Shown here: positions 21,127-52,800 of the stretch, piece after piece
Numbering within the stretch: position 1 is the stretch's first letter
Layout of the letters: each line of letters begins with the position of its first letter
Source: Diadema setosum
Lineage: Eukaryota > Echinodermata > Echinoidea > Diadematoida > Diadematidae
Assembly: GCF_964275005.1 (NCBI RefSeq)
Contig: NC_092706.1
Coordinates: 3,539,113 to 3,603,112, forward strand
Length of the DNA: 64,000 bases
Reading direction: 5' to 3'
Notes under the pieces: generated by a model
Databases searched by the model: none
The model's input: the letters and a program-made list of their open reading frames with translations, nothing else
What the model was told of the DNA's origin: nothing
Made by a program: the position numbers and the translations under genes

Positions 21127-21603
21127 TTAACATCTATATTATAATTCATGTTCTGGTGAAGGAAACGTGTGACAATCATTTGTTCCGTGATTACAGTAAT
21201 TAATCCATGTTAATCGTAGTGGACTACCTCTTTCCTATGGCAAACCTGGACTGAAAATGTGACATGGCATGCAATCTATCCAATGGCATTGCATATTGTG
21301 CGAGCTGAAATTTATATGGTGTTTCATAATTTCGCAAATTTCGCGAATTGCCTTTGAACTGTGAAATTTACAATATGTGAGTATAAAAACATGCAAAAAC
21401 AACAATGCACAAAAATACACTTACCAAAAAAAAAAGATCAAACAGTGCCAGCACTTGATTGCGAGCATCTAGTACTGTAGGTCTATGATGTAGGTATAGT
21501 AGAGCAGATAAGCCCTCAAAATCACGTGAATTGTGCAAAATTTGACTAAAGCATGAAACTTTCACCAGTGTTAGTACATACCATAAGATTTATTTTATGT
21601 ACT

Positions 21604-22260
21604 TTAGATATCAGAAAATCGATGTTTTTAGACATTTGCAAATGATATATGTGGTTATGTTGCACTAAACATGCATTTATACCACAGAGAAATCATTTCC
21701 AGATTCAACAGAGCACTGACAGGTTTTTACCTTTGACCTCTGATGACCTCCAGAGGTCAATGAACTTTAAATATCAAAATATCGATGTTTTTAGACATTT
21801 GTGAATGATATATGTGGTTATGATTCACTAAACATGCATCTATACTTCAGGGAAACCATTTTCTGATTCCACAGAGCATTGACAGGTTTTAACCTTTGAC
21901 CTCTGATGACCTTTGGAGGTCAATGACCTCAAAATATTATATTGATCTGTGATGTCATTGGTTAATGGTAACCATTGTTAAGATGTACAAAACAAGCATA
22001 TCTGTCTTACAATGAAATTGTCTTCATATTCTAAAGAGCAGACAGGTTTCTACCTTTGACCTCTGATGACCTTGAGAGGTCAATGACCTCAGAATATCAG
22101 AATATTGAAGTATGACATCATTGGTGAAAGGTCAAACATGGTAAGGATGTACAAAACAAGCATATCTGTGTACAATGACATCGTCTTCATATTCCAAGGC
22201 ACACAGACGAGTTTCTGCCTTTGACCTCTGATGATCTCGAGAGGTCAATGACCTCAAAGT
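21604..22260 (+). repeat. left-arm ~163 bp tandem monomers
   Basis: Four monomers, each beginning near AATATCA(A/G)AATAT and ending in TTTGACCTCTGATGACCT...AGGTCAATGACCTC. Monomers 1-2 and 3-4 form two subtypes: the first pair shares GATATATGTGGTTATG, the second shares GATGTACAAAACAAGCAT. Confidence 0.85.
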
Positions 22261-22649
22261 ATCAGAATAGTTTGGCATCATCAATGGTAAACATGATGAT
22301 GTTTTAGAGAGCACTCGTAGGCCCTGTTTATTAACGAGCCATTACCGTTCACCTATGAAAATCACACAAGGTCAAATACCTCGAATGAAATGTGAGGATG
22401 TTAATATTGATATTGCGATAGTTAATAGTTAATAATTGTTTATAATGTAGGGCTTACAAACCATGCATTTCTGTTACCAAAAAAGTGGTTACTCATTCCG
22501 CAGAACTTTTCAGGTAATTATCTAAGTCGGGTATGTGCACAGAGCAAGGGGTGTCGATCTGTTTTCACGTGGGGGGGGGGGAACTTGGAAAATATGTAAA
22601 AGCATAAGTTCATGGTGCAAAGGAATGAAGCGGAGGGGGAGGGGGAGGA

Positions 22650-24030
22650 TGTGGGTGGGGGATTGGATTTTTGCAGGTTTAGACCTGAAATCAGTGATTC
22701 AGTGTAGCTCTTGTTTAATGTGTGCGTCATGGGGTGTGGGCGCATCGGACCTACCCTCCTCCCAAAGACGAAGTTTTTTTTTTTTTTTTTTTTTTTTTTA
22801 AGAATCTGATGCATACGTTTTGGGGAATATTTGGAAAATTATGGATCACCAAGGTGTACCAAGTCTATATGGATGGGAACCCAGCAAGCGCAGCGTTGGC
22901 GAGGGTAGGGTATTCCACTCCCATTCGACAGAGCTCTTGTATTTTGAGAAATGAGATTCAACGACCTGGCACACAGGCACTTTCGAAGGAATACCTCGAA
23001 ATTTGTATCAAAAAGGTGTAGTAAGTCAGCCATCTATGGAGGAAGACCAATCCACAGAAGGATGTGGGTGGAGGTATCCCCCTCCCACATTATGGAGCTT
23101 TTGCATTCTTTTGTTTGCAATTCAATGATCTTGTGCCACTCTTGGTTGAACTACCATTTAAAAAAAAAAAAAAGTCCATACCCAAATGTGTAGCCATAAT
23201 CAATGCATGGAGGAGAGGTTGATACAGCGAGAGGAGGGTATGAAAGGGGCTGTCCCCCAATCCTTCCCATGCGAGGGAGCCTTTGCAGTAAGAATAGAAA
23301 TGTAAAAAAAAAAAAAATCTAGTATACACATTTATGATGGAATATTTGGGAAATTATCAGTAAAAGGAGTGTACCAAATCTAAGGGTAGAAACCGAGGAG
23401 GGATTGTTAATTGAAAGATACACTACCCCCTCCAAAAAGAGGGATTTTCTTTAATACGTCGGAACTGAAATTAAAGATCTAGTACATACTTTGTGATGAT
23501 ATAGAACAAAAATGGGACAAAAGGACTGAGCGTATATGGAAGGGGACAGAACGAAAGATAGTGTGGGGGAGGGGGTATGCAAAGGAGATTCTGCCTTTTA
23601 ATCTGGTGCATACTATAGCTAAAATGTTCAGTGACAATTCATTTTCTGTCAAAAAAGTGAAGAAAAAAAATCTCAATCTCAGGAAATACTTGGAGGCAAA
23701 GTTTTATGTCCCCACCATTCCCCCTCCCATATTTTCTCGGGAGGCGGGGCAAATGCCTCTTGCCCTCCAAAATGAACAATCGTGCATATATAGGAAAGCC
23801 TTTTCATCTTTGGAATTCAAATAAAAATATCTCTTAAAAACATTTTTCGTAGAATAAGGGAAATTATCATTCCCCAAAGTATGTTATATCTGTGGAAGGA
23901 ACCAAGCAGGGGGAAGGAGTCTATCGAAAGGAGATATCCCCTCTCACAGAAGGGAGATTTTGCATTTCAGAATTAAATTTTAACAATCCGATGCACACCT
24001 AAAGTGAAAAACTTGGGCAGTTTTCTGTCT
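22650..24030. repeat. strongly diverged tandem array, ~170 bp period
   Basis: About eight degenerate units. Recurrent landmarks are AAATTATCA...GGTGTACCAA, a G-rich/C-rich CCCCCTCCCA block, GGGAGCTTTTGCATT and ATCTGGTGCATAC. The ATCTGGTGCATAC-type landmark falls near 22803, 22965, 23125, 23315, 23478, 23600 and 23990. Divergence is high and units are interrupted by A/T homopolymers, implying great age. Confidence 0.6.
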
Positions 24031-24655
24031 AAAAAGCAAAGAACAAAAAACAACGACAAAAACTAACAACAACATCTCAGAATTTAATGGGGTGGGGGTC
24101 AACTATCCCTGCCACCACCCCACCCCTCCTCCAAACTAATGCCCCGGTATGTGCATGTGTTTTATTCCACTTGTTGAAAAGAAGAGAGAGTTTTAAGAAA
24201 CAATATTGTTCAGTGGTCGCTATCCCAGTCAAGTAAATTGTTTATCAATAAGGTGATTTCCTTCACCTGTATATCTTAAGATGATGTAGGCCTGGTATTT
24301 GCCTTGCACGTTATTACATCTATTTCTCTTTTAGTATTCTCGTTTATATTTTGATGTGAAAGTTGTTTACTTTGCCACGATTTTATTTGTACATAGAAAA
24401 AATGATCCAAGACTGAAAATGAAACTGATACAATATTTAATGATTGACATGATGCACATATTGTGTATTTCTATAGCAATAAAAGTGAGCAATTCAAAAG
24501 GCGTGTACTCATTTCACATGAACATTAGCGATGATCCTCTGACCTCTGGAGGATATTGAAAGATATGCATCAAAATGTAAGAATATTGATGTCTGGTCTC
24601 ATTGGTTTGTAATGGCCTGCTGCTTATGAAATAATAATTATATTTTAAAAAAATG

Positions 24656-24659
<4 letters not shown>

Positions 24660-24687
<28 letters not shown>
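24660..24687. repeat. GT microsatellite
   Basis: Perfect (GT)n of about 28 bases. Confidence 0.95.
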
Positions 24688-25114
24688 CCAAAATTGTATG
24701 CAGAGTATTCCACACACAGTTCAATTTTGACTTCCATCTAGGACAATGAGCGGTTACTTTTTTCTCAACTACACTGTAATATCAAAATCTATTGAAAAAA
24801 CACGGTGGCGGCTGGGTCTAACACAATCAGTATTATCATTCCTTTTCGTTGGAGATCCATGCGGGATGGTCAAAACAAACATAAAAAATAGATATCTCAG
24901 ACCTAATTGTTATAACAAAGCATCATATCCTCATATACCCAATACAACCCTCTATGCCCAGACAATGTAAACCACCCCATGGACTTACTTGGAGCTTTAG
25001 AATATCCTTTGTCAACAGAGAGAGACATCCAAACCTTTGCAGTGCCGACTAAGATCTGCCATGGAACTGACTGGTATTGGCTCTGCATCATTGACAGCAG
25101 ATCTCGTTTCCTAT

Positions 25115-25155
25115 TCTCCTTCTTCTTCTTCTTCTTCTTCTTCTTCTTCTTCTTC
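25115..25155. repeat. TTC microsatellite
   Basis: About 13 TTC units. Confidence 0.95.
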
Positions 25156-25429
25156 ATTATACTGTGTAATCTTGTAATATTCTGCCATGGAGCCTTTTCT
25201 TAATTGGTTAAAGAAGGTATCCAAAGAGCTATATGAAGCAAAAAACAACAAACAAATGCAAAAACAAAAAGAGAGACATATGTATCTTTAATAACAGAGC
25301 TGAATATTGAATATCTCTCTCCTGAAGTGTTTCAAAGAGATACAAGAGACAGTGGCCGAGAGTAGCCGCCACCTTTTTTGGGAGTAGGCCTACTTTGTGT
25401 TCTTGCAAATGATGCCTGACATTTTTGGT

Positions 25430-26330
25430 CATTTGCCCTTTTTGAAGAATGCAGCAATAGAGCCACAACTTCCTGCGGAGTGGATATTGTGAGGTTCTTG
25501 TTGCAGAACATCATCGCTGAATTTGCCTGAGCTGTACTTTCTTACAGGGATTGCCATTGTAGTTTTGTTTTGTTTTGCTTTGTTTTGTTTTTCAAGTGTG
25601 GCTGTAACACTGCTTGTTTTGCATATGATGGTCATTGCAGCTAAAGAGTGCATATCTTCTCTGGATCATTCCAAACTTCATGATGTTTCACCTGGGTGAA
25701 TGGATCCCAGATGATGCATGCATATTCCAGGACAGTCCTGAGCGGCATGGAGTAGCAAAACACCTGAACTTTATGATACTCGTATCTTCGTCTGGAGAGA
25801 GTCTTTGGTTGAAGTATAACCTTTTTAAGCTGCTGTGGCGATTTGATTCCAGCTGAGCCTCCTATTGGAACTCCAAAATATTTTGCACAATCCACTTTCT
25901 CCATCATGGTTTGCCATGAATGCTTATCTATTCCCTGGGTAGGTCTCGAATGGCAATAGCTAGTTGCAATACACAGGATTGCTTCATGTGGAATGCATGT
26001 TGGGCCTCACAGTATGTCGAAGTTTTCAAGATGGTCCATGATGTCGCAGCTGTGGACTGTATACTCCAGGACCATGAGTCATTCATCGCAGTCATACTGT
26101 AACAACCCACCAGCTTTACAGTGGCCAATACAGGCCCACCAGCTGGAAACTATGCAAATATTGCCCATGAGCTTGACACTTAGGCAAACCAGTCCCATAA
26201 TGAGTCCGACAAATTGGGGAAAAGATCTATGAGACTTACACTGAATAGATTAAACACTCTGTATATCAGTCTCGTGGGCCTTGTTTTCTCCGAGTGTCGA
26301 GATAATGGCCATATTTGCTAGTCTACATAA
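25430..26330 (-). mobile_element. degraded non-LTR retrotransposon (LINE), reverse-transcriptase remnants
   Basis: Minus-strand peptides match CR1/Jockey-type reverse transcriptase. At 26128-25928, ILKTSTYCEAQHAFHMKQSC fits the family pattern F.IL...QHGFR...SC.TQL. At 25907-25641, AKYFGVPI followed by LRTVLEYACIIWDPFT fits KYLGV...VRPVLEYAS.VWDP.T. The central catalytic part, including the YADD box, is missing, and the two parts lie in different frames with a deletion between them. It lies inside the foldback element. A dead fragment. Confidence 0.7.
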
Positions 26331-26715
26331 TTAACCCAAACATAACAGTTGTATTTGAGGTCACTGCCATCACTCAAGAAACTTAAGCTTTATTTCTGAA
26401 GTAATTGACCTCTCACATTTCAGAGACCTGTTACTATAAACCAATGCTCTGTGGAATATGCATACATACTTTGATCAAAACATCAATGCGTGATTTGTAC
26501 ATGATTAAGCATTTACGATTACACCAATGAAGCCAAACATCAATACAGGTAAGCCTACACATGTGACCTCAGTGACCTCTCATTGTCCTGAGAGGTCAAA
26601 GTTGGATATAATGCACAGGCTAATGACCAATGTTCCAGGAATGACAAGATTCTTCTATTATAGCATAAATGATTGTACATCGGTTATTACAAAGCTGACC
26701 ATTGACTATACATAG

Positions 26716-27467
26716 AATATCAATATTCTGATATTTTGAGGTCATTGACCTGTCACCTTCCTCAGAGGTCAAAGGTAGAGACACGTGGGTAATTTCTCTT
26801 GCTCTGTGGAATAGGAAAACAATTCAATTGTAATACAAATGAATATAACATCTAAATCATGTTTGTCATCAACCAATTGCACCAAATATCAATGTTCTGA
26901 CATTTTGAGGTCATTGGCCTCATCATAGGTCATCTGAGGTCATCAGAGGTCAAAGGTAGAAATCTGACTCGAAAGGCTCAGTGGAACATTGAGGCAATTC
27001 CTCTTACAAAAATTAGTTTTTAGTACATAATTATCGTGTTTCAGTTATGAGTGACGCATTAAAATATCAATTTTCTGACATTTTGAGGTCATTGACCTCT
27101 GAAGGTCATCAGAGGTCAAAGATAGAAACCTGTCAGGGCTCTGTGGAATATAAAGACAATTTCACAGTGACAAAAATTAAGTTTTAGTACATCATTACTG
27201 TGTTTTATCATTAACCAATGATGCAAAATATCAATTTTCTGACATTTTGAGGTCATTGACCTCTGGAGGTCATCAGAGGTCAAAGGTAGAAACCTGTCAG
27301 GGCTCTGTGGAACATAAAGACAATTTCACTGTGACAAATATTAAGTTTTAGTACATCATTACTGTGTTTATCATTAACCAATGACGCAAAATATCAATTT
27401 TCTTAGATTTTTAGGTCATTGACCTCTAGAGGTCATCAGAGGTCAATTCAGACTTACCTCCCGATCT
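26716..27467 (-). repeat. right-arm ~163 bp tandem monomers, inverted
   Basis: Four full monomers and a partial one, in reverse orientation to the left arm. The two monomers at 27061-27386 are nearly identical to each other, so local homogenisation or recent duplication has occurred. Confidence 0.85.
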
Positions 27468-27558
27468 TAAAATTAATCTTATAGCATGTACTAACAATGG
27501 TGAAAGTTTCATGCTTTAGTCAAATTTTGCACAATTCTTCGGCTTATCTGCTCTACTA

Positions 27559-49800: not shown

Positions 49801-52800
49801 TTATAAAATGGGCTTGTAAATTCAAGAAATTCAACCCTTTCCCTCCTCATGCCTCTGGTGCACCTACAACACTATACAAGGCTTGAGCCATGCGTTCGGA
49901 TTTTACGGGACACTTGGTTCAGTGTGGATTAGTAAAAATCAATGCATGATAATTGATCAATCACATTGCACAGATTCTAAAGACCATTCTATAATAGACG
50001 ATCAGTTCAAAAATATGACAAACTCCTGAAAAAAAAAAAAAATTAATTGATTTAGATCCCCCAACTCACCCCTTTCTCACAATTGTAATGTACAGAATCG
50101 CACCAAATTATACACAAATCACTGATTTTCCACAGAGTGGCTTCACTGAGACAATTCCTTTAAAATTTTTACCGAATGACAAGAGAAGCAATTGTTGGGA
50201 TACAAGTCTTCAGGCACACCACAAAATTGAGAGTGATATCAATCGTCAGATATAAACTTTTTAGTTGCATTCCAAGCAGCCTTATCATAAATCCAGCTAG
50301 CTTCTCACTCATGAATGAAAGGAGTTTTTTACGTCGATGTAGGGCAATTTGTCAATCAGTTGCAATGAAAACATCTCGACGGAAGAACTTCATAAATTTG
50401 AATAACAAAGCAGTACCCGCTGCATGCTATAAGGATTAGAACCAACACTTGCTGTCGGGCGAAAGCTCGGTGGTCTAGTGGAGATGACGCCTGTCCGGTG
50501 ATCAGGAGGTCGTAGGTTCGAATCCTGCTCGAGTATGTACGCCCATGATTTTTTATCATGGCTACTACTAAAACACTGATCAATTCAGTGCTTATTTACG
50601 TCGATGTAGGACAATTTGTCAATCAGTTGCAATGTAAACATCTCGACGGAAGAATTTCATGAATTTGAATAACAAAGCAGTACCCGCTGCATGCTATAAG
50701 GATTAGAACCAACACTTGCTGTCGGGCGAAAGCTCGGTGTTTTAGTGGAGATGACGCCTGTCCGGTGATCAGGAGATCGTAGGTTCGAATCCTGCTCGAG
50801 TATGTACGCCCATGATTTTTTATCATGGCTACTACTAAAACACTGATCAATTCAGTGCTTATTTACGTCGATGTAGGACAATTTGTCAATCAGTTGCAAT
50901 GTAAACATCTCGACGGAAGAATTTCATGAATTTGAATAACAAAGCAGTACCCGCTGCATGCTATAAGGATTAGAACCAACACTTGCTGTCGGGCGAAAGC
51001 TCGGTGGTCTAGTGGAGATGACGCCTGTCCGGTGATCAGGAGGTCGTAGGTTCGAATCCTGCTCGAGTATGTACGCCCATGATTTTTTATCATGGCTACT
51101 ACTAAAACACTGATCAATTCAGTGCTTATTTACGTCGATGTAGGGCAATTTGTCAATCAGTTGCAACGAAAGGAGTTTTGTTCTTACCTAACGTGGATCC
51201 ACCCTGACTTGGCACCGACGTGAAACCCTGCGTGCGTCTGAAGAAGAAAACCGTCACGCCGTCAAAGACGACCCTCTTCTTCTTCCTCCTGGTTACCCCT
51301 TCTCCATCATCCCCTGACCCTGGATGGGAAACATAATTAATGATAATTATTTCTTTTACTAAAAATCTCACACAATCTGAGACCGTATAAAATGTATACA
51401 GCAATCATAATACTTGCATTCACACAGACAGAATAGAGGGATAACGATCGCAATGCAAATACCAAGATTTTGTGGTCAGACAGATGGATAGAACTATCCC
51501 ACTAATTGCCTATCACAATAATTTGTCAGGAACTGCGCAGGCCTGAAATCTACCAAAATGGTGGATGGCACACACCCTTCAACATTTCCCAGTACCCCTT
51601 ATCAAAACAGGGTTTACTAGATTGACACAAAGTATTCAAAACTGTAATATTTCATTAAATAGAGCTAAGGTTTTTGTACCACTTTCATATAGCCAAAATC
51701 CAGCCAAAAGTAAACCAAAATTTGTCTATGATATTCTTCAAATTGTCCATTCATACACTGTCTTTAGAAGACATCACACATTACATGTATGTATTCAGAC
51801 AAGCTGGACTTTAAAAGTGATTTGATGACACGTACTACACCATGGACCAAAAATCATTCACTTGAAAACATACCGGTACAAAATCATATTAGTTACTCTA
51901 TAGAAAGAGGAAAATGCATTTGCCAAGTTTTAATTTCTACATTTAACTTTCTGCTCCTGATATCACAAAAAAGTTAGAAACAGCCCTGGTTAATTTGAAC
52001 TCATGGGCATTCCTGTCATTTTCCATGTCAAAGAAATCAAGGAGATGTCATCATTTTTAACATTTTAATTGAGATTAGCAATCAGTGTGCAGCACATTTA
52101 AAACAAAACAACAGATAATCTACTTCTACTTTTTTGAGCTCTTCATGACTGACTGCTCATCTTGTGGTTGCGTGAAGCACAGAAGACAATCATGCTGCGT
52201 CTCTATCATTTTATGCGGTCAGTTTTTATGTATTCAACACTGCTCTGTGGGGGTGCGGGAGAAAGGCTATCGCAGCTTGTTGCCGTGGGAGCAGCTACCC
52301 GACAACAGGCCTAGACACGTTTTGTGGCCATCGTGATGATGTCTACGGCTTACAACAGCTGAGGGAATGTCCATACAGTATCTATCACAGTCTCTTCTCT
52401 TTGTGCGCTCAGATAATCGAAGTGACTCATCCCCAGCATTACGTGCACTACATCCATGACAGGGATCACCTAGTCTGATTGCAAGGCTTAAATGGATTAT
52501 TTTTTTCTGTTAATTTGTGGACATCCAGTGACATCACTACAAACTGTATGCCCATAACCATGCAGCATTTTTATGATGCATGTACACAGCCATACATGCA
52601 TCATGATGGAGAACTTACCATCATTTGAACAATAGCCTGGCAGAAACTGAAACTGACCATAGTTTAAACAAAAATGCAACACTCTGTAAGTGACCTGTCG
52701 TTCACTCTGGTCAAGGGAGAGATTCCAATGGCAGGACATATCGATCTCATCAGACAATTTCAAACAATCTTGCCACATGTAAAATAGAAAGATTATCTAT

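What the first reader, a model, noticed from the sequence alone, without database searches (positions are those of the whole stretch)
50317..51179. Three 267 bp tRNA-like units inserted as one block beside a splice donor
Seen: one pair of 12 bp direct repeats (GAAAGGAGTTTT) encloses three full-length units plus a 38 bp partial unit, each full unit with a 72-nt cloverleaf, A and B boxes and a T6 run. The right repeat lies at intron positions 9-20 after the CSRNP exon 2 donor. The terminal partial unit shares a variant with unit 1, not with units 2-3. A single target duplication around a tandem array implies one insertion event, perhaps of a multi-unit Pol III read-through transcript, or a rolling-circle or concatemer product. 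I cannot place it in a named family.
Basis: partly seen in the sequence, partly recalled or inferred. Interest (0 to 1): 0.75.

Follow-up and report, generated by a model that had tools for sequence, protein, structure and literature searches.

The report
tRNA-bearing Penelope-type tandem retroelement
A small non-coding mobile element carrying a tRNA-like promoter appears to have been copied several times in a row and pasted beside a splice site in one event, most likely by the enzyme of Penelope-like retrotransposons, and many related copies in the same animal genome show the same unusual two-start, mirror-image insertion pattern.

Summary
In detail: 3 units of 267 bp plus a 38-bp partial unit sit between 12-bp target duplications (TSDs) beside a CSRNP splice donor. 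The unit belongs to a large family: two internal motifs each match about 6,000 places genome-wide, reversed-motif control 0. Of 36 insertions tested, 24 have TSDs of 12-17 bp; mismatched-end control 2 of 1260. Of 43 insertions read, 33 are two arrays head to head. Outer ends fall mostly at two unit positions, about 38 and 77: of 29 two-armed insertions with both ends in view, 21 use one site at each end and none use the same site twice. Units of one insertion, both arms included, share variants. This is the Penelope-like element (PLE) insertion signature, and PLEs with RT and GIY-YIG domains occur here. The unit has no recognised ribozyme, so it is not a retrozyme by definition. Best reading: a Pol III-type, ribozyme-less, PLE-mobilised tandem element, multimerised from about one unit during reverse transcription, on an RNA circle or by template switching. 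No sequence-matched PLE partner was found. New variant of a known kind.

The parts
50317..50328 (.). left target site duplication GAAAGGAGTTTT (its last base can also be read as base 1 of unit 1)
   Evidence: direct reading; TSD test
50328..50594 (+). unit 1 (267 bp); 5' end of the insertion at unit phase 1; haplotype A at positions 17-70
50595..50861 (+). unit 2 (267 bp); haplotype B plus three private changes
50862..51128 (+). unit 3 (267 bp); haplotype B
51129..51166 (+). 38-bp partial unit; its end at phase 38 is start site S1, where reverse transcription is inferred to have begun; carries the haplotype A base at position 17
51168..51179 (.). right target site duplication, positions 9-20 of a CSRNP intron (gene on minus strand)
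50464..50536 (+). tRNA-like segment of unit 1 (inferred Pol III promoter; A-box-like GGTCTAGTGG and B-box-like GGTTCGAATCC)
   Evidence: Rfam RF00005 42.8 bits; ARAGORN; motifs
50731..50803 (+). tRNA-like segment of unit 2, weaker
   Evidence: Rfam RF00005 30.0 bits
50998..51070 (+). tRNA-like segment of unit 3
   Evidence: Rfam RF00005 42.8 bits
50543..50561 (+). hairpin CCATGAT-T-run-ATCATGG of unit 1 (also in units 2 and 3): Pol III terminator-like T6; T number varies from unit to unit across the family
   Evidence: T-run statistics
50332..50382 (+). hairpin CGTCGATGT...ACATCTCGACG of unit 1 enclosing start site S1 (phase 38); start site S2 lies at phase 77 (about 50404)
   Evidence: fold; weak pair support; sites

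Best explanation
The array is one insertion of a non-autonomous, tRNA-promoter-bearing retroelement that uses Penelope-like (PLE) machinery in trans. Inferred steps: a unit is transcribed, probably by Pol III from its tRNA-like segment. A PLE endonuclease-reverse transcriptase cuts both strands of an AT-rich target with a stagger of about 12 bp. Each cut 3' end starts reverse transcription inside the RNA at one of two sites 39 nt apart (phases 38 and 77), one site per strand. Each reverse transcriptase copies the roughly one-unit template repeatedly, on a circular RNA or by repeated return to the same template, and can stop at many places. The two cDNA arms are joined head to head. In the window only one arm is present (made alone, or the second lost), starting at phase 38 and stopping at phase 1 after just over three rounds. 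Shown here: the arms, the clustered outer ends, the one-of-each rule, TSDs, shared haplotypes, and RT/GIY-YIG elements in the genome. Inferred: Pol III transcription, the PLE as actor, the circle.
For: Outer ends: 50 of 58 fall in two narrow phase windows; 21 of 29 two-armed insertions have one end in each, 0 of 29 have both in the same one; random re-pairing gives a mean of 10.8 and never reaches 21 in 100,000 trials. Arm order is minus then plus in all 29 and in 10 of 10 mixed clusters among 62 clusters on contig C1, taken from the first 100 listed rows of each of two searches. TSDs in 24 of 36, 12-17 bp, 74.5% A+T; control 2 of 1260. Units within an insertion differ by 1.13 substitutions, between arms 1.02 (10 insertions), between insertions 5.25; permuted labels give 4.88 within. 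PLE biochemistry: two adjacent internal RT start sites that equal the 30-40 bp tail, both strands cut and extended (PMC11167929, parts 1-2 of 4). PLE genomics: head-to-head inverted pLTRs, 9-bp TSD, a 31-bp tail on one of the inverted pLTRs (PMC3846280, passages). In this genome 51 GIY-YIG matches (150 of 247 candidates scored), frames up to 1004 aa; three long frames scanned carry RT and GIY-YIG domains (3 of 3). The one PLE whose two ends I saw (L063 with L098) has inverted pLTRs and a 45-bp tail at one end only.
Against: None of 23 GIY-YIG loci sampled (of 51 hits; 20 of the 23 fall in five families) shares the start-site region; the short match GCAGTACCC in one family lies at a different offset from its start sites. 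The better-sampled PLE families here sit mostly in (TA)n, these elements in varied AT-rich sites. No circle or transcript was observed. 8 of 29 two-armed insertions have one end off both sites. 12 of 36 have no TSD by the test, although one of these (L035) has a 13-bp repeat beyond an A-run. The window array and L036 mix two haplotypes, which a single monomer circle does not give by itself. Some haplotypes are shared by several insertions (minimum distance to other insertions 0 for L031, L033, L034). Contig C78 shows unequal exchange at DNA level, so long arrays are not pure insertion products. 5' ends are not uniform: an excess at phases 264-6 and none of 67 at 83-121, 9.8 expected, unexplained.
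Confidence: 0.66

Rival explanations
1. A multi-unit Pol III (or Pol II) read-through transcript of an existing array was copied as one long linear RNA.
For: The mixed haplotypes of the window array and L036 are natural if a mixed array was transcribed; groups of insertions share a haplotype.
Against: Private variants are fixed in all full units read of both arms (L037 8 of 8, L044 9 of 9, L045 14 of 14, L050 11 of 11), which needs amplification from one unit; each unit holds a T-run; no excess of 5' ends where a Pol III start is expected (3 of 67 at 120-140, 5.3 expected).
Confidence: 0.15
2. A single-unit insertion was expanded afterwards by unequal crossing-over, satellite style.
For: Higher-order repeats of 12 and about 16 units in contig C78; weak, non-significant periodicity in L031 (p 0.12).
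Against: In several insertions both arms are multi-unit, inverted, haplotype-sharing, and still end at the start sites inside TSDs (for example L033, L034, L044); this needs two independent expansions per locus.
Confidence: 0.1
3. LINE-type twin priming of a tRNA SINE (L1/RTE/CR1-like partner).
For: Twin priming also gives inverted 5' parts with TSDs (recalled); tRNA-like heads are typical of SINEs.
Against: No poly(A) or simple-repeat tail seen at the outer ends printed; the second start is at a fixed site in most cases, not random; one-of-each use of two sites; tandem multimers. LINEs of this genome were not searched.
Confidence: 0.1
4. A degraded or divergent retrozyme whose ribozyme is not in Rfam or is assembled from two units.
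For: Unit size 267, GC 42.7%, tandem array and TSD fit metazoan retrozymes (PMC7229834, abstract, passages and discussion).
Against: No ribozyme among Rfam matches at E up to 10 over the window array; hammerhead pattern in 1 of 132 units, antisense, a chance-like hit, whereas 8 of 23 GIY-YIG loci carry a motif; too little covariation to reveal an unknown ribozyme.
Confidence: 0.15

Closest known systems
Penelope-like elements (Penelope/Poseidon clade; PAc of Anolis, Pen2a of Adineta)
   Same: Head-to-head inverted arms, tandem or partial-tandem units, short TSD, two RT start sites 30-45 bp apart with the tail at one end only (PMC11167929 parts 1-2 of 4, PMC3846280 passages; L063 here).
   Different: No ORF, no hammerhead in the unit, tRNA-like promoter, unit of 267 bp, TSDs of 12-14 bp in 21 of 24 copies; no sequence match to sampled PLEs.
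Metazoan non-LTR retrozymes
   Same: Tandem 150-450 bp non-coding units, GC below 50%, TSDs, multimers thought to be copied from a monomer circle (PMC7229834 abstract, passages and discussion; PMC7761336 passages).
   Different: No hammerhead ribozyme; a tRNA-like segment instead. The review states that metazoan retrozymes show no conserved motif from which their autonomous partner could be deduced; this element shows a PLE-type insertion signature.
SMalpha of Schistosoma (SINE-like with type I hammerhead)
   Same: SINE-like, satellite-like repeat; the W-element matching it is 335 bp (PMC8490949 passages; a Pol III promoter in SMalpha is recalled, not read).
   Different: Carries a hammerhead; the insertion architecture was not compared.
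tRNA-derived SINEs (SINE2)
   Same: tRNA-like head with A- and B-box-like motifs.
   Different: Tandem and inverted arrays, internal RT starts, no poly(A) or simple-repeat tail seen.
Helenus (TRIM with tRNA-like LTR)
   Same: tRNA-like promoter inside a repeated unit of a non-autonomous retroelement (PMC10886601 passages).
   Different: Helenus has LTRs, PBS, PPT and 4-5 bp TSDs; here TSDs are 12 bp or longer and arms are inverted.

Membership tests
Penelope-like element insertion (mobilised in trans) | head-to-head arms (minus then plus) | tested here: met
   29 of 29 two-armed insertions and 10 of 10 mixed clusters on C1 from capped lists
Penelope-like element insertion (mobilised in trans) | two RT start sites about 30-40 bp apart, tail on one end only | tested here: met
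   phases 38 and 77; 21 of 29 one-of-each, 0 same-site pairs, 8 with one end elsewhere
Penelope-like element insertion (mobilised in trans) | short TSD at AT-rich target | tested here: met
   24 of 36, 12-17 bp, 74.5% A+T
Penelope-like element insertion (mobilised in trans) | GIY-YIG plus RT source in the genome | tested here: met
   51 GIY-YIG matches; 3 of 3 long frames scanned have RVT_1 and GIY-YIG; activity not testable
Penelope-like element insertion (mobilised in trans) | start-site sequence shared with a PLE of the genome | tested here: not met
   no match beyond short words in 23 sampled loci; the other 28 GIY-YIG hits and unscored candidates not examined
Penelope-like element (itself) | RT-EN open reading frame | tested here: not met
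   267-bp unit is too short for one; so not itself a PLE
Retrozyme | self-cleaving hammerhead ribozyme | tested here: not met
   Rfam E up to 10 none; pattern scan 1 of 132 units, antisense
Retrozyme | tandem 150-450 bp units, low GC, TSD | tested here: met
   267 bp, 42.7% GC, TSD
Retrozyme | circular RNA intermediate | not testable with these tools
   no RNA data; only sequence inference
tRNA SINE | tRNA-like internal promoter | tested here: met
   RF00005 42.8/30.0/42.8 bits; promoter activity not tested
tRNA SINE | poly(A) or simple-repeat 3' tail, dispersed monomers | tested here: not met
   outer ends at internal phases 38/77 in 50 of 58, arrays and inverted arms; a LINE-derived 3' end was not searched for
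Helenus/TRIM | 4-5 bp TSD | tested here: not met
   12-17 bp TSDs
Helenus/TRIM | LTRs with PBS and PPT | not tested
   no dedicated search; tandem and inverted arms do not form an LTR-internal-LTR layout

The most novel reading that the evidence does not exclude
A ribozyme-free counterpart of retrozymes: a Pol III-type tRNA-bearing unit multimerised from single molecules and inserted by a PLE dimer that uses two different start sites of one RNA, one for each target strand. If the template is linear rather than circular, the telomerase-related PLE reverse transcriptase would be re-copying the same unit many times, a telomerase-like mode of array making; the variable T-run at the terminator could then mark the junction between template passes.
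Probability: 0.35. Interest if true: 0.8.

Novelty: new variant of a known kind. Interest (0 to 1): 0.62.

Why it matters
Which autonomous element moves the small tandem retroelements of animals is open; the 2020 retrozyme paper and review name PLEs only as the likely candidate (PMC7229834 discussion, PMC7761336 passages). This family carries a readable PLE-type signature in many copies, lacks the ribozyme thought to make the circle, and gives a quantitative rule (one start site per strand, no same-site pair in 29) that can be tested with purified PLE protein.

Tried and rejected
Partner search: unit against 23 GIY-YIG loci with short-word blastn. The GCAGTACCC match in family A is about as long as chance gives (own estimate, no call) and sits at a different offset; rejected as homology. 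The only long match, in L065 83-388, is an old separate copy of this family next to a PLE.

Looking for an autonomous partner among copies with the S2 motif but no nearby tRNA motif: 12 of 12 fetched were copies of this family; about 20 such places had been picked from the list.

Covariation: 36 sequences, 69 predicted pairs, 1 pair with a double change; uninformative. Hot spots of private substitutions at tRNA positions, as modified bases might give: 21 observed, 20 expected; rejected. Period in L031: p 0.12. Head-to-head junctions at equal phases in both arms: 13 of 29 within 40 nt, p 0.10; not supported.

Promoter activity and small RNAs: no transcriptome available. Organism: mitochondrial COX1 reads through with TGA=W and AGR=S and looks echinoderm-like; that likeness is recalled, not tested.

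Literature: ten searches of an open-licence library without preprints or most subscription journals; their listings showed no paper on a tRNA-promoter element moved by PLEs. SMalpha is the nearest. 'Nonautonomous Penelope elements' in Heliconius is a passing remark (PMC6685494, passages).

Caveats of counting: phase windows for S1 (33-48) and S2 (68-86) were chosen after seeing the data; phases were copied by hand from the BLAST edges (where these differ by a few bases one was taken). Of 43 insertions read (window, L031-L060, L086-L097), 29 are two-armed with both ends in view; 4 two-armed (L045, L050, L087, L091) were dropped for ends out of view or rearranged; 10 show one arm in the stretch read, of which L046, L086 and L090 run to or near the edge. 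L061 and L062 (one long array) and the old copy in L065 were not counted. The TSD test used 36 of the 43; L045, L046, L050, L086, L087, L090 and L091 were not entered. L086-L097 were chosen by a motif that covers S2; without them the pair count is 15 of 21. The best-match search scored 39 of 483 candidates, so L031-L060 favour copies like the window's.

Full report
What is there. At 50317-51179 three 267-bp units and 38 bp of a fourth stand between 12-bp direct repeats. Each unit holds a tRNA-like segment and a T6 run in the loop of a hairpin. The gene on the minus strand is CSRNP, and the right repeat covers positions 9-20 of the intron. No other copy of the unit was found in the window at E 0.001.

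The family. A search of the window's own 912.7-Mb assembly returned 180 unit matches from the 39 of 483 candidates that were scored. Two internal motifs (up to 2 mismatches) occur 6,039 and 5,957 times; the reversed motifs occur 0 times. I read 43 insertions.

Architecture. Of the 43, 33 are two arrays head to head, minus arm left and plus arm right, so both outer ends are 3' ends of the sense sequence; 10 show one arm in the stretch read, the window among them. Mixed clusters on contig C1 are minus-then-plus in 10 of 10 (62 clusters, from two lists capped at 100 rows). Outer ends fall mostly at unit phases about 38 (S1) and about 77 (S2). Of 29 two-armed insertions with both ends in view, 21 are S1 with S2, 7 are S2 with another position, 1 is S1 with another position, and none is S1 with S1 or S2 with S2. 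Within the set not chosen by motif the S1-S2 count is 15 of 21. Inner (5') ends are scattered, with a mild excess at phases 264-6 (scan p 0.0045 for a 10-nt window), none of 67 at 83-121 (9.8 expected) and 3 of 67 at 120-140 (5.3 expected). TSDs occur in 24 of 36, 12-17 bp, and in 2 of 1260 mismatched controls.

How the units arose. Units of one insertion differ by 1.13 substitutions on average against 5.25 between insertions; units in opposite arms of one insertion differ by 1.02 (10 insertions). Four insertions carry private variants fixed in all full units read, in both arms: L037, L044, L045, L050. I infer that a single unit was amplified at, or just before, insertion, and that both target strands copied the same template or templates of the same origin. 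The T-run changes length inside 11 of 18 multi-unit insertions, by steps up to 10, while three other short tracts change inside 1 or 2 of 18. I read this as slippage, or as a junction between template passes; it is not settled. The window array itself is a mixture: unit 1 carries one haplotype over positions 17-70, units 2 and 3 another, and the terminal partial unit has the unit 1 base at the one diagnostic position that it covers. L036 is similar. This suggests occasional change of template.

Who moves it. Frangieh et al. 2024 (PMC11167929, parts 1 and 2 of 4 read) show that a purified PLE cuts and extends both strands and starts reverse transcription at two adjacent sites inside the RNA, which explains the 30-40 bp tail of genomic copies. 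That paper reports no difference of start site between strands, so the one-of-each rule is not taken from it. Arkhipova et al. 2013 (PMC3846280, passages) describe head-to-head inverted pLTRs, a 9-bp TSD and a 31-bp tail on one of the inverted pLTRs. The 39-nt distance, head-to-head order and one-of-each rule found here fit that pattern. The genome has 51 GIY-YIG matches (150 of 247 candidates scored) with frames up to 1004 aa; three long frames scanned have RT and GIY-YIG domains; 8 of 23 GIY-YIG loci have a hammerhead motif. The one PLE whose ends I saw on both sides (L063 with L098) has inverted pLTRs and a 45-bp tail at one end only. Against this, no sampled locus shares sequence with the start region, and the better-sampled families sit mostly in (TA)n.

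What it is not. No ribozyme is among the Rfam matches at E up to 10, and the hammerhead pattern hits 1 of 132 units, antisense and chance-like. By definition it is not a retrozyme, though it may work like one in making tandem copies from a monomer. It lacks a poly(A) or simple-repeat tail, so it is not an ordinary SINE. It is not a TRIM of the Helenus type by TSD length (PMC10886601 passages).

Long arrays. Contig C78 shows higher-order repeats of 12 and about 16 units, so DNA-level unequal exchange also shapes the longest arrays; this does not readily explain two-armed insertions with TSDs and both arms multi-unit.

Limits. There are no RNA data, no second genome and no named organism. The mitochondrial contig suggests an echinoderm (the likeness is recalled). 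The circle, the Pol III transcript and the PLE as actor are inferences.

Noticed in passing
window 21545-27505: Two arrays of about 163-bp repeats in opposite orientation (21597-22269 and 26713-27446) lie inside similar inverted end sequences (ACTAAAGCATGAAACTTTCACCA... at about 21545 and its complement at about 27500): probably one 6-kb DNA transposon with subterminal tandem repeats.
   Followed up: partly
G000 contig C78 (L061, L062): 66.9-kb contig; both stretches read (18.9 kb) consist of this unit, with higher-order repeats of 12 and about 16 units and one head-to-head junction.
   Followed up: partly
L063-L065, L067-L071, L074-L085: At least five PLE families; several carry minimal hammerhead motifs, and most sampled copies of families A, C and D end in (TA)n.
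   Followed up: partly
L045: The two arms mirror some of each other's unit variants from a junction at the same phase (148/148), a near-palindrome; not seen in the other two-armed insertions with informative variants.
   Followed up: no
L088 355-372: One arm starts at the T-run instead of S1 or S2, in an A-rich target, as if primed on an RNA ending at the Pol III terminator.
   Followed up: no
L060, L053, L059, L047, L034 T-run: Greatly lengthened T-runs (up to 16 bases between the hairpin arms); in L034, L047 and L053 only one of the units of the array is affected.
   Followed up: partly
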